A stretch of 64,000 bases of DNA from Erythrobacter sp. KY5 (GTDB taxonomy: Bacteria; Pseudomonadota; Alphaproteobacteria; Sphingomonadales; Sphingomonadaceae), in assembly GCF_003264115.1 (NCBI RefSeq), contig NZ_CP021912.1:3021001-3085000 (forward strand). The letters are read 5' to 3'. The notes below the pieces were generated by a model. The model saw only the letters and a program-made list of their open reading frames with translations. It had not been told where the DNA came from and ran no database searches. Below are positions 7,771-56,028 of the stretch, one piece after another. Numbering within the stretch: position 1 is the first letter of the stretch; each line of letters starts with the position of its first letter. The position numbers were made by a program, and so were the translations under genes.

Positions 7771-10167
7771 CTAGAATGAGCATTCCGTACCTTCTGGCAG
7801 CGCGCTGCGCGAGATCTGCGCGATCGAGAATTGCAGCGGCGCGTTCGTGGTGATGGTGAGGCCATCGCCAAATTCGCCAAGGCACGCCTCGGTCAGGACC
7901 ATTTCGCGCCATCCCTTGCCAGCGGCAACCGTCATGCGGCGCGTCACGTCCTCGGTCCGCTCGCCGCTTGCAATGGTCACGGTGCCTGCGGGAGCGGCGG
8001 GCAGGTTGTAAGTGATGATGTAAGCGCCCTCGCCTTCGCCAGCGACGGTGAAGCTTGAACCCGGTCCGAATGTCAGCTGGCGCGCATCTTCCTGCCGGTT
8101 GCGGTCGATACCGCGAGCAACGAGACCCCCGCCTTCACCGCGCAGGTTCGGCAAGTCCGTCCCGCCAGCACTTGCGGTGATGCCGGCAGACAGGCGACCA
8201 TTAACAAACCAATCGGCAGCCGGAGCGCCATCCAGGAAGCCGCAGCTTTCGCTGAGGTCGCCCAAGGGGGCAGTGTCGTCGAGCGAACGGCCATAGCCAA
8301 GCGCGAACAGAGCGCCATCCGGGCCATTGAGCGGATTCCCCTCGCAGCTTGCAGGCCAGCTGAAGGATAGCTTGCCCGTGGCAGCCCTCTCGCCGAACAG
8401 AATGTCAGCAACGCCCGCGCCTTCACTGCCCGGAAGCCATGAGGCAACAAATGCGTCGGATGCGTTCAGTTCGCGGTTCACCCACATGGGACGGCCCGAA
8501 AGGAACACCGATACTGTCGGGATGCCTAGCTCTTCGAATTTGCGTAGCAGGTCGAGGCCCTCGCTATCCGCGAAGATCAGGTTCTTCCGGTCGCCAGCAA
8601 ATTCTGCGTAAGGCTCTTCGCCAAAGACCACGATCGCAATGTCGGGGCGCTGGTCGAATGTGCCATCTGTCGAAAGCGTTGCGCTGCCGCCGCTTTCTTG
8701 CGCCGCTTCCTCGATCCCTGCCCAGATCGAGGTCGCTCCCGGGAAGTAGTCGTTGGTCAGCTCGCGACCGCCTTGCCAGGTGAGCGTCCAGCCGCCAGCG
8801 GCCTGCGCGATGCTGTCCGCGGCGACACCGGCAACGAGGATATCGGAGCCCGGCTTCAAAGGCAGGACCCCGTCATTCTTGAGGATCACCTGCGACTTGG
8901 CGACAGCTTCACGAGCAACAGCGCGGTGCGGCGCCATGCCAAGCTTGTCGTATTCACCGGCATTGGGCCGCGCCGAGGGACTCTGAGCATCCGGACCCAG
9001 CAGTCCGGCACGCTGCTTGATGCGAAGGACGCGGGCAACCGCCTCATCGACGCGCGCTTCGGGAATAGTGCCATCGCGAACCTGCGCTACCAGCGAGGTG
9101 TGCAAGGCGACAGCATCGTCTGGCACCATGTAGATATCGAGCCCTGCGATAAGCGCCTGCGGGCAGTCGGAAACAGTGCAGCCAGCAATCTGCCCGTGGC
9201 CATTCCAGTCGCCGACCACCAGTCCTTCAAAGCCCATCTCGCCGCGAAGCACGCCCGTGAGCAAAGCTTCGTTCCCGTGCATCTTTGTGCCATTGATTGA
9301 GTTGAAGCTTGCCATGATGGTTTCGACACCGGCCTCGATCGCGACCGGGTAAGGAACCGCGTGGATCGCCTTGAGCGCATCGATGTCACCGTTGACGTCG
9401 CCCTGGTCGACACCCTGATCGGTGCCGCCATCGCCAAAGAAGTGCTTGGCGGTTGCGATAACGCGGCCTCGGCCGAGGTAATCCTCGGCGCCTTTCTTGC
9501 CCTGCAAACCTTCGACGAGTGCAGCGCCCATTTGTGCGACCAGATCGGGATCTTCGGAATAGCTTTCGTAAGTACGGCCCCAACGGTCATCGCGCGCGAC
9601 CGCAACGGTCGGCGAGAAGTTCCAGTCGATCCCGGTCACCTCGATCTCTGTAGCGGTTGCAGCCCCGATCTGCCGGACAAGGTCCGCATCGCCGGTTGCG
9701 CCAAGGGCGATGTTGTGCGGGAAAATTGTCGCCTGAACGACATTGGTGTGGCCGTGAACGGCGTCTGTGCCCCACATCGTAGGGATGACAGGCTCACCAT
9801 CTGGCAAGGGTTGCGTCGATGCGTCCCACATCTCGTCCGCGAGGCGCAGCCATTGCGATGCGGGCGCAAATTCGTCGCCGTAAGGGCCGCCATTGCCCCC
9901 ATTGAGATAGCTGCCCCAGCGATACTCTTGCATCTCTTGTGCATCGAACGAATTGATTTGCGGCTGGATCAGCTGCGCGACCTTGCGCTCCAGGCTCATG
10001 CGCGAAACCATGTCCGCAATCATGTTATCTGAAGCGGAGGGCGCGGCTTGCGTTGCTGTTGCAGCTACGGGCGCGCTGCTCGCAGATTGAAGGCTGCCTT
10101 CGCCACATGCAGACAAGGCACCAAGGCTAACGGCGTTGACCAACGCCAGACGGAAATTCAGTCGCAT
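7771..10167 (-). CDS. Glycoside hydrolase family 3 beta-glucosidase/exo-glucanase, lipoprotein
   Basis: 798 residues from the ATG at 10167; a TTG 7 codons earlier is less likely because GGGAGGGG sits before the ATG. The lipobox LSAC (Cys21) implies a lipid-anchored periplasmic or surface protein. The GH3 N-terminal barrel contains AKHFFGDG (KH pair, about 241-246) and the nucleophile Asp320 in LVVGDWNGH. The second alpha/beta domain (about 400-640) includes VVFGEEPYAEFAGD. A C-terminal beta-sandwich follows from about 650. GH3 enzymes of this layout release glucose from the non-reducing end of beta-1,3/1,4-glucans. It would complete digestion started by the GH16 enzyme at 12543. A LacI-type operator lies 44 bp upstream, so it can be transcribed separately from the MFS gene above it. 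Confidence 0.92.
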   Translation of the reverse strand: MRLNFRLALVNAVSLGALSACGEGSLQSASSAPVAATATQAAPSASDNMIADMVSRMSLERKVAQLIQPQINSFDAQEMQEYRWGSYLNGGNGGPYGDEFAPASQWLRLADEMWDASTQPLPDGEPVIPTMWGTDAVHGHTNVVQATIFPHNIALGATGDADLVRQIGAATATEIEVTGIDWNFSPTVAVARDDRWGRTYESYSEDPDLVAQMGAALVEGLQGKKGAEDYLGRGRVIATAKHFFGDGGTDQGVDQGDVNGDIDALKAIHAVPYPVAIEAGVETIMASFNSINGTKMHGNEALLTGVLRGEMGFEGLVVGDWNGHGQIAGCTVSDCPQALIAGLDIYMVPDDAVALHTSLVAQVRDGTIPEARVDEAVARVLRIKQRAGLLGPDAQSPSARPNAGEYDKLGMAPHRAVAREAVAKSQVILKNDGVLPLKPGSDILVAGVAADSIAQAAGGWTLTWQGGRELTNDYFPGATSIWAGIEEAAQESGGSATLSTDGTFDQRPDIAIVVFGEEPYAEFAGDRKNLIFADSEGLDLLRKFEELGIPTVSVFLSGRPMWVNRELNASDAFVASWLPGSEGAGVADILFGERAATGKLSFSWPASCEGNPLNGPDGALFALGYGRSLDDTAPLGDLSESCGFLDGAPAADWFVNGRLSAGITASAGGTDLPNLRGEGGGLVARGIDRNRQEDARQLTFGPGSSFTVAGEGEGAYIITYNLPAAPAGTVTIASGERTEDVTRRMTVAAGKGWREMVLTEACLGEFGDGLTITTNAPLQFSIAQISRSALPEGTECSF

Positions 10168-47733: not shown

Positions 47734-48804
47734 TTAGTGCTCGTTGCGGACGCTAGTTGAGATGCATTCAATCGCAGTTTCGAATACATTGTGAAGTTTG
47801 CCCGTATTCCCAGAGAAGACGTCGTGCCCTGCGTTCTCGATCGCAACAATGCTTGCAAGATCCCACTGATCGAAGCCTGAGTTTTGGGGGTCATTTTCAC
47901 CGATGATGAAGCTTGGACATTGAGAATTCAGCATCTCATCTAGTGGAGTGGTGTCGCGTTCAACTGCAAACGCCTCAAGGTGCCGAATCGGTTGAATGAG
48001 GCGGGTCCCAACGAATTGCTCAGGCTCGGAATCTGGGCTACGATAAATGTACGCTGTCGCAAACTCACGGGACAATTCTTCACTCGAGCGAATGGTCTTG
48101 AAGTGACTGACGGCATATGAGATTCCGAGCATCACCGGGGATATCGCCAAAAAGTCTAGATTTAGGTCTTTGTACGTCCGCATGTAGTGAAAAACTATCG
48201 CGGCCCCTAAGCTCTCACCTATAACTAGAGGCTCGCAGGCACAGCGTTGTCTGTAGTAAGATAATGCGTTTCTGAGGTCGCGAGCTGCTAGGTCAATCTC
48301 GTTTTCTTGCAAGTTTGTTCTGAAACGCGACCCCCAATATCCAATAGATGCAAACAGATAGCCGCGCGAATGAAAATAGGAAAAAGCATCTGACCTGTAA
48401 TCCGCCGCGTATGCAAAAGGGGGCAAATCGGTCCCCCCGCTAAGATGGATCACCACTTTGTCCGCTTCGATTGATCCGGCGACTAATGACTCGATCGAAG
48501 GGACAGACGCCCAATCATTGGCATCAATCCTATTCAATCTGAATTCTAGCCCGTTTTCTTCCCAAGCGCTGCAAACCGATGAGTTTAATGACCCTGGCGC
48601 TTCGCTCGTCAAGCAGTTTGACCAGTCTTTCGCAGCTCTGTTGAATTCACGCAGGCTGTGCGAGCCAAGTCTTGCCTCAAGTTCGCTCATAGTTTTTTCT
48701 GAAACACCGCAGCACTCCGCACTGTCAACGCAAGATGAAAGGAGGAGTGCTGCGAGCACTCCTCCACATTTGAGCTTCGAAATGAATTGATTTGAAGCTG
48801 GCAT
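47734..48804 (-). CDS. Lipoprotein alpha/beta hydrolase in the peptide-export operon
   Basis: 356 residues with a lipoprotein signal ending LLLSSC (Cys25), so it is membrane-anchored in the periplasm. It is hydrolase-like: VVIHLSGGTDLPPFA as oxyanion region (about 117-131), nucleophile elbow GESLGAA and late His in AGHDVFSG. Six further cysteines in the N-terminal half suggest disulfides. It starts 8 bp after the GG-leader precursor and is surely cotranscribed with it. It could process, modify or give protection against the exported protein. None of these can be chosen from sequence. Codons are AT-richer than in flanking genes. No close family is recognised. Confidence 0.75.
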   Translation of the reverse strand: MPASNQFISKLKCGGVLAALLLSSCVDSAECCGVSEKTMSELEARLGSHSLREFNRAAKDWSNCLTSEAPGSLNSSVCSAWEENGLEFRLNRIDANDWASVPSIESLVAGSIEADKVVIHLSGGTDLPPFAYAADYRSDAFSYFHSRGYLFASIGYWGSRFRTNLQENEIDLAARDLRNALSYYRQRCACEPLVIGESLGAAIVFHYMRTYKDLNLDFLAISPVMLGISYAVSHFKTIRSSEELSREFATAYIYRSPDSEPEQFVGTRLIQPIRHLEAFAVERDTTPLDEMLNSQCPSFIIGENDPQNSGFDQWDLASIVAIENAGHDVFSGNTGKLHNVFETAIECISTSVRNEH

Positions 48805-48812
48805 CGGGTGGC

Positions 48813-49403
48813 TTACCAGCCAGGCGAAGTCTGAGTAAGCTCAAAGCTAATCGAACCGCCATCACTCGATGACATTGAAAGCGTGAGTGCTGAACTCCCA
48901 CTCGTGCTCGATCCGCTATTCATGCCTAGCCTCGTGTTTTCGACGTAAGTTACGAATTGGTAGGTGTCTGAGGTGAAGATGTTATCGGTAACAGCCCAAA
49001 GATAACCCTTGCCATCTGGCCCAATGTTTGCCGCAAACTTGCTGTCACCAATGTTACCGACAACCATAATCTGGTTTTCTTGGTCAGGGAATTGGTTTTC
49101 AACAAATGCTTTGAAGTCATCGGTATCCGAGTCGAAAAGACCAGCTGGCTGCCACTCGTCATCGTCTGGGAATTCTTCATTGGTTCCCTCCATCATGTCG
49201 ATCATCATCTGGATGGCACTGGCTTGCTGCATATTTTGAAGGCCTATCAGATCCATACCACTTAGACCGCCAGACCTGGGGCCAGTCACCGTGATAGTGT
49301 TTCCGGTAACAACGATGTCTGCACCTCCACAGACAGCCATCAGTTCCGCATTGCTGAGAGTCCTGAAGCCACTGTCTTTTTCAATTACGTTCGATTGAAG
49401 CAT
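48813..49403 (-). CDS. Double-glycine leader protein, probable substrate of the adjacent exporter (196 aa)
   Basis: Residues 1-27 form a classical double-glycine leader (FRTLSNAELMAVCGG), with cleavage predicted after Gly27. The mature part would be 169 residues. It begins ADIVVTGNTITVTG, continues with a Met/Gln-rich segment and an acidic stretch (EEFPDDDEWQ), then a sheet-like region and a Ser/Gly-rich end (NSGSSTSGSSALTLSMSSS). That is much longer than a bacteriocin, and there is no Cys after the leader, so lanthionine or disulfide chemistry is not expected. The gene sits 64 bp after the C39-ABC exporter and 8 bp before the lipoprotein hydrolase. Role unknown: a toxin, adhesin or signalling protein are all possible. 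Confidence 0.8.
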   Translation of the reverse strand: MLQSNVIEKDSGFRTLSNAELMAVCGGADIVVTGNTITVTGPRSGGLSGMDLIGLQNMQQASAIQMMIDMMEGTNEEFPDDDEWQPAGLFDSDTDDFKAFVENQFPDQENQIMVVGNIGDSKFAANIGPDGKGYLWAVTDNIFTSDTYQFVTYVENTRLGMNSGSSTSGSSALTLSMSSSDGGSISFELTQTSPGW

Positions 49404-49467: not shown

Positions 49468-51714
49468 CTAGCTCCTGACGTCGGTTGGGCCCTCTCCGTC
49501 TCCACCTGTTGGATAAATCTCCATCGCTCGCGATTTGTTTCGCTCGGCCATCTCGATCAGCATGGCTCTACTTTCTGCTTCCGCTCGCAAGACGGCTTCT
49601 TTGTCGACCGCCTGGCCGGCCGAGACCTCGTATACCTTCTCAGCTGCCTCCAAAGTCGCAGGACGATGCGCGACTGCGATGCGAGTAATGCTCAACGACT
49701 TGAGGGTTTCGAGGATTTTGCTTTCATTCTCGGCGTCGAGATTTGCGGTTCCCTCATCAAGGATGAGGACGCTGGGATCAGGATAAAGTGCACGGGCCAG
49801 CAATACCCGCTGCAGCTGGCCTCCTGAGAGGACAGAACCCATATCACCGACAAGAGTTTCGTAGCCCATCGGCATCGCTTCGATCTCGGAGACGATCTGG
49901 GCCATTCGGGCAACCTCTCGAACCCGTCTCATGTCAATCTCGGGGTCGAAGAATGCAATGTTCTCTGCGAGCGAACCGGCATAGAGCGTATCGCCCTGAG
50001 CGACCGATCCAATGGCACGACGATAGTGCGCTTTCCGGCATGACGATATGGGGCGTTCGCCCAATCGAACCACGCCATTGGTTGGCTCAAACAGGCCTGT
50101 CAAAACCTTCATTAAGGTGGTCTTTCCGCCACCCGATGGGCCTGTCATGGCAATAAACTCGCCAGGTCCGATTTTCAGGTTGATCCCCCGAAGAACCAAG
50201 GGTTCATTTGTCCCGTATCGATAGCACACGCCATCCAGCACGAGTGGTTTGGTGAAGTCTGGGTCTTCATTGCTTTTCTCGACCTCTCCTTCTTCGAGCG
50301 GAGTGAGAGCAATGTCAGCAATGCGCGTGAGATGCACTTTGACAATCTGATAGTTGATCGCCTGTTCAGTCAGTCGCATTCCTGCATCCAGAAACTGTTG
50401 CTTGTAAGCCTGGAAAGCAAAGATCATGCCCACTGTGAGAACGCTATCGAACGCGAGGTTGATGGCGATGTAGACAAAGACCACACGCTCTGCGCCGATC
50501 ACAAACTGCCCCAGCGCATCGAATGCTGCCTGCAAGCGGCCGAGCTTCACTTGAGCGTTTACGGCATCAGCCTTGGTTCTTTGCCAGATACGCTGGCGAT
50601 TGCCTTCCTGGCCAAAGGCCTTGATCGCGGATATTCCCCGGACACTCTCAATAAAATTGGAGTTTTCTTTCGCCATCGTTGTGATGACGTCGAGGTTGCG
50701 AAGCTTGATCGACTGAAGGAATGCAAGCCGCAGGCCCACATATACTGCCAATGCTGTGCAAGCGACTCCACCAAGGATTGGCGAGTACACGAACATAAGT
50801 GCAAGCGTCAGGATCGCCATGAGTCCATCGATGAACGCTGCTATCATGCCTTGACTAATAAGTTGGCTGATTGGCTGCGTTGATCCAAAGCGTGAGATTA
50901 TGTCGCCAACGTGTCGCTTCTCGAAATAGTCAAGCGGCAGGCGCATCAGGTGCCTGAAGAGGTTCACAATTACTTGGTACGAGAGCGAATTTGAGAGTGT
51001 CACCAAGATCAATGACCTTAGCCAACTCGCAAGCAAGTTGACGATGACAAGACCGCCAAAACCCAGCGCCAACATGAAGAGCAAGTCGCTATCGAACGCT
51101 GGAAAGACGGTGTCGATTGAAATCTGAAGGAAAAAGGGTGTAGCAAGAACAACCAGTTGCATCACCAGCGAGTGCAAGACGATCTGCCGGATCGTGCCCC
51201 ATAACCCGGTCATCTTCGACCAAAGTTGAGTAATGCCGAGCTGCTTGCGCTCAATCCTCGGTTTAAAGCCTTCTGATCGCAACAATTCGAGAGCAACACC
51301 GGTCCATTGCCGCGACACCTCGTCCTCGCTCATTACCAAAGAGCCGCGAGCCGGATCGTGAATGTGGTAGCGTTTTCCTCGGACACTGCCAGTGATTGCA
51401 GTGAGAACCACGAAGTGATTGAGATTCCAATGAAGGATCGCAGGCATCGAAAGATGCGGCATATCCTCAATCTCACCCCGCAAGGGACTTGTATTGAAGC
51501 CGATGTCCTCGGCGACCTGCATTACTTGCTTAAGGTTCGCGCCCTTTAAGCTCATGCCATATCGCTGGCGCATTGCGATCAAGTCTGTCTTGAATCCGTA
51601 AAAGCCCGCAACCATTGCGAGACACGCAAGAGCGCACTCGCTTGCTTCCCCTTGCGCAATCTAGGGTGTGCGCTGACGCCCGGAAAACTCGACAAGATCA
51701 AGAGGACTGTTCAT
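49468..51714 (-). CDS. C39-peptidase ABC exporter (PCAT) with in-frame TAG at codon 18
   Basis: Read from the ATG at 51714, the gene is 748 residues with TAG at 51661-51663 (codon 18). Without readthrough the first available start is ATG34 (51615), giving 715 residues. The skipped part holds the catalytic Cys27 of the C39 peptidase (EASECALACLAM). His in NHFVVLTAI and Asp in HDPARGS lie after the TAG. A six-helix transmembrane domain (about 185-450) is followed by the ATPase: Walker A GPSGGGKTT, signature LSGGQLQR, Walker B LILDEGTANLD, switch VAHRPAT. PCATs cut GG leaders while exporting the peptide. The start overlaps the HlyD stop (TGATG), which fixes the true 5' end before the TAG. Confidence 0.85.
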
Positions 51715-52979
51715 CAGGTTCTATTGATCACCGCATTGAGTGGTTGAAGTATCCAAGCGAGAAAGCTCTGGCGTTCAAGCACGATGTTGGCCTGCAAGGT
51801 CATGCCAGGCTGAAGGCGGGCAGGTGCACCAAACGCATCGACTTTCTGCTCCTTGAGCGCGACTCTCACCCGATAAACTGGCTCTTCGAACGGGAATGGG
51901 ATTTCAGATTCGTGAGGATCGATTGCGATCCGTGAGATCGAAGCGACCTGCCCTTCGAAGCTGCCAAAGCGTTGATAGGGAAAGGCGTCGTAGAGTAGCC
52001 TCGCTTCTTTGCCTTGCTCGACAAAGCCAATCTAGCGTGTTGGTGCGTAGAGTTCAGCCGCTAACTCTGCCCCCGTTGGCACGATCACCATTAAGGGACG
52101 GGCGGTTGAAGCCGTTCTACCCGTTCCGGTTGCAAGGGCGGTCACTCGCCCGCTGATGGGAGCCGTGACGGCGTAGCTGCGCTCGCCTTCTAGTCTGGCT
52201 TGTTCTGCGGACAATGATTGAAGGCTATCCTTGAGGCGAGATATTCCTTGCTCTGCATCGAGGCTGACGGTCGACAGCTGGCTTCGCGCCTGCGAAGCAT
52301 CGGATAAGGCCGATAAACGTCTTTGTTTCAGACCTGCCAAGGATTGCTGTGAAGAAAGCACGGTTTGGCGTCGGCGCTCAAACTCAACTTTCGAAACGTA
52401 GCCTTGCTCGACGACCTCTCTTACTCGGTCGAAAATTTCCTGGTTCGAAGCAACAACCTGTTCTTGAAGCGCGATTTGCTCAGCAAGGCTACGCGCTTGA
52501 TCTTCGGCTGACGCGACAAGTGCCGAAAGACGGGCTCGCTCTACGGAAGCACGAGAATCTGCGAGCACTACCTGCGCCTGCGTCAACTCTCTGCGCGCCT
52601 CTATCGCACCAAGACCTTTGCCAACAATGCCGCCACCTGCCTCCGTCTCTCGATCCGAATTGATGACAAGCAGAGTGTCACCCTTCTTTACTGACTGTCC
52701 TTCAGCGACCCGAAGATCTATTACGATGCCTGCCTGTGCGGGTAGTACCCTCGCGCTCGGTTCATTGGTGACTAGTATTCCAGGGACTGTTTCGATCCGG
52801 GCGTAATTTCCCACTGACAGCCAAATAGCCGCAAACACCAAGACTGCGAACAGAGTTCCGGCGAATAGCTTGGTTGATAGCGGCTGCGAAAGAACTACTT
52901 CACCATACAGTCGGTTCTGATTAGCCTGAACAGCCTCATTACGAAAAAGTGACAATTGCAACCCCGTGATTCGAGACAC
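51714..52979 (-). pseudogene. HlyD-family periplasmic adaptor interrupted by an in-frame TAG
   Basis: From GTG at 52979 (MSRITGLQLSLFRNEAV) a membrane helix (about 37-55), a lipoyl-type region (VLPAQAGIVIDLRVAEGQSV) and a long coiled-coil hairpin (about 120-265) follow in adaptor order. TAG at 52032-52034 is codon 316, inside the beta-barrel. The same frame then continues without another stop for 105 codons (IGFVEQGKEARLLYDAFPYQ, LQPGMTLQANIVLERQ) to TGA at 51714-51716. The total is 421 residues, normal for HlyD/RaxA adaptors working with PCAT exporters. The product cut at the TAG would lack the barrel end and membrane-proximal domain. It is either a pseudogene or a readthrough gene. Confidence 0.8.
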
Positions 52980-53829: not shown

Positions 53830-53970
53830 ATGGACTCCACCGTCGTGGTCGAGGAGGAGGATTTTCGCTGGAACGACCGGCTCTTCCCCAGCCTCTCGGC
53901 TGCCGCAACCGCGATCGCGGGCAGCCGCTGGAATGGACCGCGGTTCTTCGGATTGCGGGACAACGCATGA
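53830..53970 (+). pseudogene. DUF2924 C-terminal remnant
   Basis: The frame from 53830 reads [20 protein letters not shown], then [16 protein letters not shown], ending in TGA that overlaps the recombinase start (ATGA). The phrases match the C-terminal third of DUF2924 proteins, which precede serine recombinases in sphingomonad islands. The N-terminal two thirds are not recognisable upstream, so this is a truncated remnant. The preserved 4-nt overlap shows the pair was once an operon. Confidence 0.7.
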
Positions 53971-55572
53971 GCAGCAAGATCAAACGTTGCGCGATCTACA
54001 CCCGCAAGTCGTCCGAAGAAGGGCTCGACCAGTCGTTCAACAGTCTCGATGCGCAGCGCGAAGCGTGCGAGGCCTATGTCCTGAGCCAGGCATGCGAAGG
54101 CTGAGAAGCGAGAGCATATCGCTATGATGACGGAGGGTTCTCGGGCGGCAACACCGATCGACCCGGATTGCAGGCACTGCTCGCCGATATCGAAGCCGGA
54201 CGCATCGATATCGTAGTCGTCTACAAGATCGATCGGCTCACCCGCAGTCTCGCCGATTTCGCACGCATCGTCGAGATCTTCGAGACACACGACTGCAGCT
54301 TCGTCTCGATCACCCAGTCGTTCAACACGACCGGCTCGATGGGCAAGCTGATGCTCAACGTATTGCTGTCATTTGCTCAGTTCGAGCGCGAGGTCACCGG
54401 CGAGCGCATTCGCGACAAGATCGCTGCGTCCAAAGCCAAGGGCATGTGGATGGGCGGCAACTTACCATTGGGGTATGATGGGCCACGCGACGGTATACGA
54501 ACACTTGTCGTGAACGAGGCAGAGGCTGAAACCGTCTGCGACATCTTCAAACGTTATCTCGAGCTTGGCTCGGTCCATGCGCTCGCGCGATCTCAAAGCC
54601 CGCGGCGTTGTCTCAAAGCATCGTATCACCGCCAAGGGTCGCAGGATGGGCGGACTGGCGTTCAGCCGCGGTGCGCTGTTCCATCTGCTCCGCAACCGCG
54701 TCTACCTAGGGCAGATCATGCACAAGGGGGTAGCCCGCGAAGGCGCGCATGATGCGATCGTCGACGCCGAGCTGTTTGCTAAGGTCCAGGATCGGCTTGA
54801 TGCGCAGGTTCGACGGCACCGCAGCAAGGCCCACCGCCGAAAGATCAAGGCCCCACTTGCCGGAAAGCTGTTTGATGCGGTCGGTGAACCTATGAGCCCA
54901 ACCACCTCGCGCGGGAAGTCGGGCAAGAAGTATCGCTACTATGTCTCTGCCTCGCTGCAGCAGGGATCAGGACCAACCGATGCCGATCGTGTGCAGCGCG
55001 TGTCGGCACCCGAGATCGAGAAGGTTATCGCAGCCGCGATGGAACGATGGATGCCAAAGGACAATGATCCGTTCGGACTCATTCGTTCCGTTCGCCTGCG
55101 CGACCGGGGACTGCAGGTCAGCGTTGGCAACGTTCAAGCAGCCAACATTGCAGCGCGGCTTGCCGATGACGAGACGATTCTTGATCGCACCGCCGACATG
55201 GTCACCATTCTTCTACCGATTCAGTTTGCAACGCGCGGGAGCAAGCAAAAGATCGTTCCCGTAACCTCGCGTCCGCCGCAACCTGATCCGGTGCTGATCG
55301 TTGCCCTTAGAAAAGCCCATTGCCTGCTGCGCGTTGAACGCGGATTGCCGGTCATGGATACCGCGCCAGGCTCTCCTTACGATCGCAACATCCTAAGGTT
55401 CGCATTCCTCGCACCTGACATCCAGCGCGCCATAATCGATGGGCTTCAGCCGCTGGATCTCAATCTCGAGAAACTGAAAAGAACAACGATCCCGCTCGCG
55501 TGGTCGAAACAGCGGCAAGCGCTGGGATTTGCCGAGATGGCCGCGCCCTGTTCTGGCGAACAAATATCCTGA
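53967..55572 (+). pseudogene. Serine recombinase pseudogene (TGA plus frameshift)
   Basis: From the ATG at 53967 the resolvase catalytic domain begins [15 protein letters not shown] (Ser nucleophile in the KSS segment). TGA at 54102-54104 (codon 46) replaces what is normally Trp in the EGW segment. The same frame resumes YDDGGFSGGNTDRPGLQALL, VVYKIDRLTRSLADFARI and SFAQFEREVTGERIRDKI. Near 54582-54590, within a GCGCGC-like run, the frame shifts, apparently by a 2-base loss, to DLKARGVVSKHRI. The recombinase and zinc-ribbon-like C-terminal domains follow to TGA at 55570-55572. The gene is of the large serine recombinase type, about 535 residues if intact. Two independent lesions make it non-functional. 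Confidence 0.88.
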
Positions 55573-55929: not shown

Positions 55930-55945
55930 GGGATGGGTGGCGGAG
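55930..55945. repeat. Right copy of 16-bp direct repeat (att-like), overlapping tRNA-Ser 3' end
   Basis: GGGATGGGTGGCGGAG spans the CCA end, discriminator and first acceptor bases of tRNA-Ser plus 8 bases beyond it. It is identical to 46838-46853. Confidence 0.6.
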
Positions 55946-56028
55946 CAGGAGGGATTCGAACCCTCGATACGGGGTTACCGTATACACACTTTCCAGGCGT
56001 GCGCCTTCGACCACTCGGCCACTGCTCC
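55938..56028 (-). tRNA. tRNA-Ser (anticodon GGA)
   Basis: Read on the minus strand, the acceptor stem GGAGCAG pairs with CTGCTCC, then discriminator G and an encoded CCA. The D-arm contains GGCCGAGTGG. The anticodon stem CACGC/GTGTG (with one G-U pair) holds the loop CTGGAAA, so the anticodon is GGA, reading UCC/UCU. A long variable arm, typical of tRNA-Ser, precedes the T-loop GGTTCGAATCC. Length 88 plus CCA. Confidence 0.95.

What the first reader, a model, noticed from the sequence alone, without database searches (positions are those of the whole stretch)
49468..51714. TAG at codon 18 of the C39-peptidase exporter hides the catalytic cysteine
The only ATG consistent with operon coupling (51714, overlapping the HlyD stop) is followed 17 codons later by TAG, then by IAQGEASECALACLAM with the C39 catalytic Cys27. 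If translation restarts at ATG34 the exporter has no leader-peptidase nucleophile but an intact transporter core. So the TAG could act as a switch between a cleaving and a non-cleaving exporter, or it could mark inactivation.
Basis: partly seen in the sequence, partly recalled or inferred. Interest (0 to 1): 0.75.

Follow-up and report, generated by a model that had tools for sequence, protein, structure and literature searches.

The report
Peptide export operon broken by nonsense
In this Erythrobacter-like bacterium both genes of a peptide export pump carry a premature stop codon not seen in the related species examined, so the pump is most likely a recently disabled remnant and not a molecular switch.

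Summary
The TAG at codon 18 of the C39-peptidase ABC exporter is real (51663-51661, minus strand). Neither stop is shared: 16 of 16 distinct close homologues have Tyr at exporter codon 18 and Ala or Ser at the HlyD position. Met34, the proposed restart, is present in 16 of 16, as part of the C39 motif. Of 41 tRNA genes found none reads UAG; release factor 1 is intact; TAG ends 52 of 204 long frames sampled. Apart from the stops both frames are open and look conserved, so the loss seems recent; the tests for relaxed constraint are inconclusive. A serine recombinase upstream is also broken. Best explanation: recent inactivation of a peptide-export operon. A programmed TAG switch is not supported; low-level readthrough is not excluded. 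Interest is low.

The parts
49468..51714 (-). C39-peptidase ABC exporter gene, nonsense-interrupted; start ATG at 51714, natural stop TAG at 49470-49468
   Evidence: PF03412, PF00664, PF00005 on the read-through protein; 16 distinct close homologues 62-90% identical over the compared codons
51661..51663 (-). premature TAG, exporter codon 18
   Evidence: Tyr in 16 of 16 distinct close homologues
51613..51615 (-).
   Evidence: Met in 16 of 16
51714..52955 (-). HlyD-type adaptor gene, nonsense-interrupted; likely start TTG at 52955 (ATG or TTG at this place in 13 of 14 homologues), alternative GTG at 52979
   Evidence: PF13437; TIGR01843 147.2 bits, below its cut-off of 208.65
52032..52034 (-). 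premature TAG in HlyD (codon 316 counted from GTG 52979, 308 from TTG 52955)
   Evidence: Ala in 11 and Ser in 5 of 16
48813..49403 (-). intact 196-aa ORF with a GG-type leader (LSNAELMAVCGG/A), the likely cargo
   Evidence: leader of the kind seen beside several homologous exporters; no Pfam or NCBIfam match
47734..48804 (-). ORF of 356 aa, alpha/beta hydrolase-like, possible accessory gene of the operon
   Evidence: PF12697 1.9e-7; no match at 20 homologous loci
53967..55572 (+). broken serine recombinase: in-frame TGA at 54102-54104 and a frame change near 54597
   Evidence: PF00239 on 54105-54596 and PF07508 on 54598-55569

Best explanation
A peptide-export operon (HlyD adaptor, then C39-peptidase ABC exporter, then GG-leader cargo) has been inactivated recently by two independent nonsense substitutions, one in each pump gene. 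Shown: both stops, their absence from the relatives examined, the otherwise open frames, the ordinary code and tRNA set. Inferred: ribosomes end at the HlyD TAG, so the adaptor lacks its last 105 residues and the exporter start, which overlaps the HlyD stop, gets few ribosomes; those that start there end at codon 18; a restart at Met34 would give at most a little exporter without its peptidase nucleophile and without a full adaptor. The GG-leader cargo then stays uncleaved and unexported.
For: TAG at exporter codon 18 and at HlyD codon 316. Among 16 distinct close homologues: Tyr at exporter codon 18 in 16, Ala (11) or Ser (5) at the HlyD position, a stop in exporter codons 1-40 in 0. In the wider set of 37 loci, 0 of the 34 covering codon 18 and 0 of the 25 covering the HlyD position have a stop there. 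Each TAG is one substitution from a codon used at that place by close relatives (16 of 16 for the exporter, 4 of 16 for HlyD). 41 tRNA genes found, none with a CUA anticodon; prfA intact; TAG ends 52 of 204 long frames; 0 of 106 matches of three large domain families hold an internal stop. The only other C39-type match in the genome lacks the Cys, read by eye. The neighbouring recombinase is broken. A MAG of Porphyrobacter sp. IPPAS B-1204 carries a damaged copy of the same operon: the exporter stops matching at residue 568 with no tail found in the 17.7 kb locus, and HlyD has a TAG at 411. On the window branch HlyD has a higher amino-acid to third-position ratio than any close taxon, 0.224 against 0.072-0.208.
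Against: No frameshift and no further stop in 1169 codons. The exporter branch ratio, 0.052, lies inside that of relatives, 0.029-0.108 without the two outgroups. Changes at otherwise invariant exporter columns are only slightly above close relatives: 8 plus the stop of 308, against 0-7 of 255-306; HlyD 4 of 117 against 0-6. That test also leans against the window, because two duplicate rows were still in it and relatives with a near sister are shielded. So decay is not visible beyond the two stops: it is recent, or the genes still do something. The GG-leader ORF is intact.
Confidence: 0.85

Rival explanations
1. Both TAGs are read through (natural leakiness or an unknown suppressor), so that small amounts of complete adaptor and exporter are made; two TAGs in one pump would make export depend steeply on readthrough.
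For: Both stops are TAG and there is no other lesion in either frame; the exporter branch looks constrained.
Against: No CUA anticodon among 41 tRNA genes found (the Rfam tRNA model could miss an unusual tRNA); RF1 intact; TAG is a common terminator here; folding around each stop is no better than shuffles, z 0.26 and 0.13; stops not shared. Two TAGs are unremarkable: 47% of one-step stops in these genes are TAG, so both TAG has a chance of about 0.22.
Confidence: 0.06
2. Restart at ATG34 makes a non-cleaving exporter, like the C39-like domains of RTX exporters.
For: ATG34 is in frame, 45 bases after the TAG, and the rest of the frame is open; a C39-like domain without the Cys works in HlyB (PMC8277102, passages).
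Against: Met34 is in 16 of 16 homologues as a motif residue; a restart loses Gln21, Cys27 and the start of the domain; HlyD is cut too; the neighbouring cargo keeps a GG-type leader, while HlyA, the cargo of HlyB, has none (PMC8277102, passages); no close relative has the stop.
Confidence: 0.04
3. One or both TAGs are sequencing or assembly errors.
For: Only one genome of the species was available; the stops are absent from relatives.
Against: Single 3.31 Mb contig, completeness 99.98, contamination 0.03; two substitution errors that each make a stop in neighbouring genes are unlikely; the recombinase nearby is broken too.
Confidence: 0.05

Closest known systems
PCAT exporters (peptidase-containing ABC transporters: PCAT1, ComA)
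   Same: C39, membrane and ATPase domains in one chain; Cys27 present, His100 and Asp120 by motif; best solved chain 4ry2 'ABC-type bacteriocin transporter' (4e-86, query 19-705); that this entry is PCAT1 is recalled, and 6v9z, named PCAT1 in PMC10885120 (passages), scores 8.3e-85
   Different: Here the frame is cut before the Cys, and the partner adaptor is cut too
NHLM-type and type I secretion exporters (TIGR03796, TIGR01846)
   Same: Best NCBIfam scores of the read-through exporter
   Different: 463.4 and 378.8 bits against cut-offs of 853.3 and 725.55: not members by the curated cut-off
Cdz contact-dependent bacteriocin system of Caulobacter (cdzABCDI)
   Same: Alphaproteobacterial type I exporter and adaptor next to peptide cargo (PMC5380434, passages)
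   Different: Cargo here is one 196-aa ORF, not two small proteins of 86 and 84 aa; membership not tested
Bacterial genes lost by single nonsense changes, e.g. arginine decarboxylase of Chlamydia (PMC2720952, title and start of abstract in the listing)
   Same: Point inactivation of an operon gene, independent in different lineages
   Different: Other function and organism

Membership tests
C39-peptidase ABC exporter (ancestral identity) | C39 domain with Cys, His, Asp; ABC membrane domain; ATPase domain | tested here: met
   on the sequence read through the TAG (His and Asp by motif only); not met for any product that starts after the TAG
C39-peptidase ABC exporter (ancestral identity) | uninterrupted frame from the coupled start to the Cys | tested here: not met
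   uninterrupted in 16 of 16 homologues
NHLM ABC1 (TIGR03796) | score above the curated cut-off 853.3 | tested here: not met
   463.4 bits
Programmed stop-codon recoding | stop conserved among relatives | tested here: not met
   0 of 16; 0 of 34 and 0 of 25 in the wider set
Programmed stop-codon recoding | suppressor tRNA or loss of RF1 | tested here: not met
   41 tRNA genes found, none CUA; prfA intact
Programmed stop-codon recoding | structured signal next to the stop | tested here: not met
   z 0.26 and 0.13 for 121 bases around each stop
Pseudogene | lineage-specific disabling lesions, more than one | tested here: met
   one genome per species, so strain-level spread unknown
Pseudogene | relaxed constraint since inactivation | tested here: inconclusive
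Pseudogene | no functional product made | not testable with these tools
   needs proteomics or profiling
Cdz system | two small glycine-zipper toxins and the CdzI immunity protein | not tested
   gene content from passages of PMC5380434; no profile was run

The most novel reading that the evidence does not exclude
Two in-frame TAGs, one in each pump gene, act together as a double lock: export of the GG-leader peptide happens only when TAG readthrough rises, so that a condition that weakens termination switches on both halves of the pump at once.
Probability: 0.04. Interest if true: 0.65.

Novelty: new member of a known kind. Interest (0 to 1): 0.13.

Why it matters
As an inactivation it is ordinary, but it is a clean example of a peptide exporter caught shortly after loss: both pump genes carry a nonsense change, the cargo gene is still whole, and a second species shows a damaged copy. 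It also warns that one premature stop next to a catalytic residue should not be read as a switch before the rest of the operon and the relatives are looked at. If the double-TAG lock were true, it would be a new way of coupling secretion to translation termination.

Tried and rejected
Suppressor tRNA: all 41 tRNA matches were read for their anticodon (30, 10, 1); none reads UAG. One leucine tRNA has anticodon TAG, which reads CUA. The Rfam tRNA model could miss an unusual tRNA; no search for pyrrolysine genes was made.

Shared context of the two stops: ACACSCTAGATTG matches both sites exactly and nothing else in the window with 0 to 2 mismatches. It looked like a signal, but in the 14 close loci the codon two before is Thr in 14 (exporter) and 9 (HlyD), and the codon after is Ile in 13 and 10, so much of the likeness follows from the proteins. 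This was judged after seeing it, with no planned test.

Coding-score survey of 464 kb for further in-frame stops: two places flagged, which by reading are the end of what looks like a threonyl-tRNA synthetase gene before another frame, and what looks like an antisense frame (labels recalled). The method did not flag the HlyD TAG itself, so its negative result says little; searches are better evidence, though they cover only three domain families and only the matched domain stretches (the exporter's own ATPase domain is among the ABC_tran matches).

L116, listed with '1 TAG' inside: the TAG lies near query residue 723 and looks like the natural end of that gene. Stops listed for distant homologues (for example TGA in G229 and G013, TAA in G023 and G132, TAG in G135) were not followed up. 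L110 and L111 were not examined.

GG leaders: a first pattern was too strict and missed even the window. In one search, 10 of 19 loci had a pattern hit; I accept 8 as plausible (window, L075, L077, L078, L081, L083, L088, L116) and set aside L115 and L103 by eye; L082 has one by eye only.

Invariant-column test: the duplicate rows L073/L120 and L088/L121 were left in, so their zero counts mean nothing and the test leans against the window, which has no near sister. In the exporter tree the place of the window is poorly supported (bootstrap 23).

Viral contigs: 3 stretches matched a pattern, none a relative. Plasmids: 865 records, all under 60% identical, 10 listed; too distant to inform on the stops.

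Papers: seven searches. Erythrobacter with double-glycine and bacteriocin: 0 papers. C39 peptidase with premature stop codon, exporter and pseudogene: 0. Amber codon with readthrough, bacteriocin and ABC transporter: 2, unrelated by title. Passages only were seen of PMC5380434, PMC10885120 and PMC8277102; PMC2720952 only in a listing.

No structure prediction or fold search was run.

Full report
What is in the sequence. On the minus strand, 51714 to 49468 encodes a C39-peptidase ABC exporter whose 18th codon is TAG (51663-51661); the C39 motif with Cys27 follows. The read-through protein matches Peptidase_C39 (17-144), ABC_membrane (180-442) and ABC_tran (508-657); its best solved chains are bacteriocin transporters (4ry2, 4e-86).

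The gene in front, the HlyD-type adaptor, is interrupted in the same way: its frame has TAG at 52034-52032 and then runs open to the TGA that overlaps the exporter's ATG. The part before the TAG keeps the first lipoyl stretch but matches only profile positions 2-43 of 106 of PF13437 (29.7 bits, against 59.2 for the whole). The HlyD start is probably TTG 52955, since 13 of 14 homologues have ATG or TTG at that place; the GTG at 52979 is used only for numbering. So both pump genes are broken, and the first break lies upstream of an overlapping, probably coupled start.

Relatives. Homologues came from 298 genomes of the family (55 with a match at 1e-60), 114 of the genus (20 with a match at 1e-150) and one scan of named genomes (39 loci, among them Erythrobacter rubeus KMU-140 and several uncultured Erythrobacter). 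After dropping two duplicate rows (L073 equals L120, L088 equals L121 in the exporter), 16 distinct close homologues remain; 12 of them are 84-90% identical in the exporter (L109, the 90% row, covers only 94 codons). Exporter codon 18 is Tyr in 16 of 16; the HlyD position is Ala in 11 and Ser in 5; a stop in exporter codons 1-40 occurs in 0 of 16; Met34 is present in 16 of 16. In the wider set of 37 loci, 34 cover codon 18 and 25 cover the HlyD position, none with a stop there; in the more distant ones codon 18 varies (Val, Leu, Ile, Met, Phe). Each TAG lies one substitution from a codon used at that place by close relatives. The stops are therefore private to this lineage, as far as one genome per species can show.

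Code and tRNAs. RF00005 gives 41 tRNA genes; the anticodons of all 41 were read and none is CUA. Release factor 1 is intact: 495.6 bits against a cut-off of 423.25. In 464 kb of this genome (window and 20 stretches of 20 kb), 204 open frames of at least 300 codons end with TGA 113, TAG 52 and TAA 39 times. In 38 ABC_tran, 38 adh_short_C2 and 30 TonB-barrel matches no internal stop was found. TAG is an ordinary terminator here.

Is it decayed or still selected? The two frames have no other stop and no frameshift over 1169 codons. Eleven of the 12 nearest homologues (all but the partial L109) share 84-88% of exporter residues with the window but only 41-48% of third positions, so the gene was strongly conserved for most of its history. 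On the window's terminal branch the amino-acid to third-position length ratio is 0.052 for the exporter, inside the 0.029-0.108 of relatives other than the two outgroups (0.181, 0.229); the place of the window in that tree is poorly supported. For HlyD it is 0.224, above all close relatives (0.072-0.208) and below the two outgroups (0.255, 0.285). At columns invariant in all others the window differs at 9 of 308 in the exporter, the stop included (close relatives 0-7, outgroups 38 and 44), and at 4 of 117 in HlyD (close relatives 0-6, outgroups 14 and 19); this test leans against the window, as two duplicates were still in it and the window has no near sister. These numbers fit a recent loss and cannot distinguish it from retained function; third positions are saturated.

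Neighbourhood. The downstream 196-aa ORF keeps a GG-type leader (LSNAELMAVCGG). A plausible GG leader follows the exporter in 8 of 19 loci, the window included, but the cargo differs: a relative of the window's ORF was found at 1 of 20 loci (L081, first 58 residues), and the hydrolase-like ORF at none. The genome's only other C39-type match at E 0.001 is an exporter whose domain lacks the Cys (by eye), so no intact C39 exporter was found that could cleave this cargo. Upstream, a serine recombinase on the plus strand has an internal TGA and a frame change. The operon (about 50-55% G+C) is mostly lower in G+C than its surroundings (about 54-63%). In a MAG of Porphyrobacter sp. IPPAS B-1204 the same operon is also damaged: the exporter stops matching at residue 568, its tail was not found in the 17.7 kb locus, and HlyD has a TAG at 411, where only 10 residues are lost. 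Loss of this export system thus appears to have happened more than once.

Mechanism, as inferred. HlyD translation ends 318 bases before the exporter ATG. That ATG has no obvious ribosome-binding sequence (by eye) and overlaps the HlyD stop, the arrangement of a coupled start. Few ribosomes should reach it, and they end after 17 codons. Restart at Met34 would lose Gln21, Cys27 and the start of the domain. An exporter with a C39-like domain lacking the Cys exists in HlyB, but its cargo HlyA has no GG leader (PMC8277102, passages), unlike the cargo here. No folding better than shuffled sequence surrounds either stop (z 0.26 and 0.13).

Verdict. The stop is real; the switch is not supported; inactivation is. 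Two TAGs are not a striking coincidence: 47% of the stops reachable by one substitution in these genes are TAG, so two stops are both TAG with a chance of about 0.22. What remains open is low-level readthrough and confirmation in other strains.

Noticed in passing
window 52032-52034: In-frame TAG in the HlyD adaptor gene directly upstream; not in the finding.
   Followed up: yes
window 53967-55572: Serine recombinase broken by a TGA (54102-54104) and a frame change near 54597, about 0.4 kb from a tRNA-Ser gene (55938-56028).
   Followed up: partly
L080, HlyD stop at 7966-7968 and exporter end near 9700: A MAG of Porphyrobacter sp. IPPAS B-1204 carries another damaged copy of the operon: HlyD TAG at residue 411 and an exporter that stops matching at residue 568, its tail not found in the locus.
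   Followed up: partly
L073, L074, L076 downstream of the exporter: In these species the next ORF begins with a sulfotransferase-like motif (VHNPKTxGRS; label recalled, not searched) where others have a GG-leader ORF: the exporter is kept with different neighbours.
   Followed up: no
L082 10911-12449 and L075 10845-12386: ORFs of 512-513 aa, alike by eye, follow the GG-leader ORFs and match no Pfam family.
   Followed up: partly
L002 (G000:C1 2714409-2717624): The second C39-type ABC exporter of this genome lacks the catalytic Cys at the start of its domain (by eye).
   Followed up: partly
window 1-64000: CTAG occurs 45 times against 94 expected by shuffling; both premature stops and the natural exporter stop lie in CTAG.
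   Followed up: no
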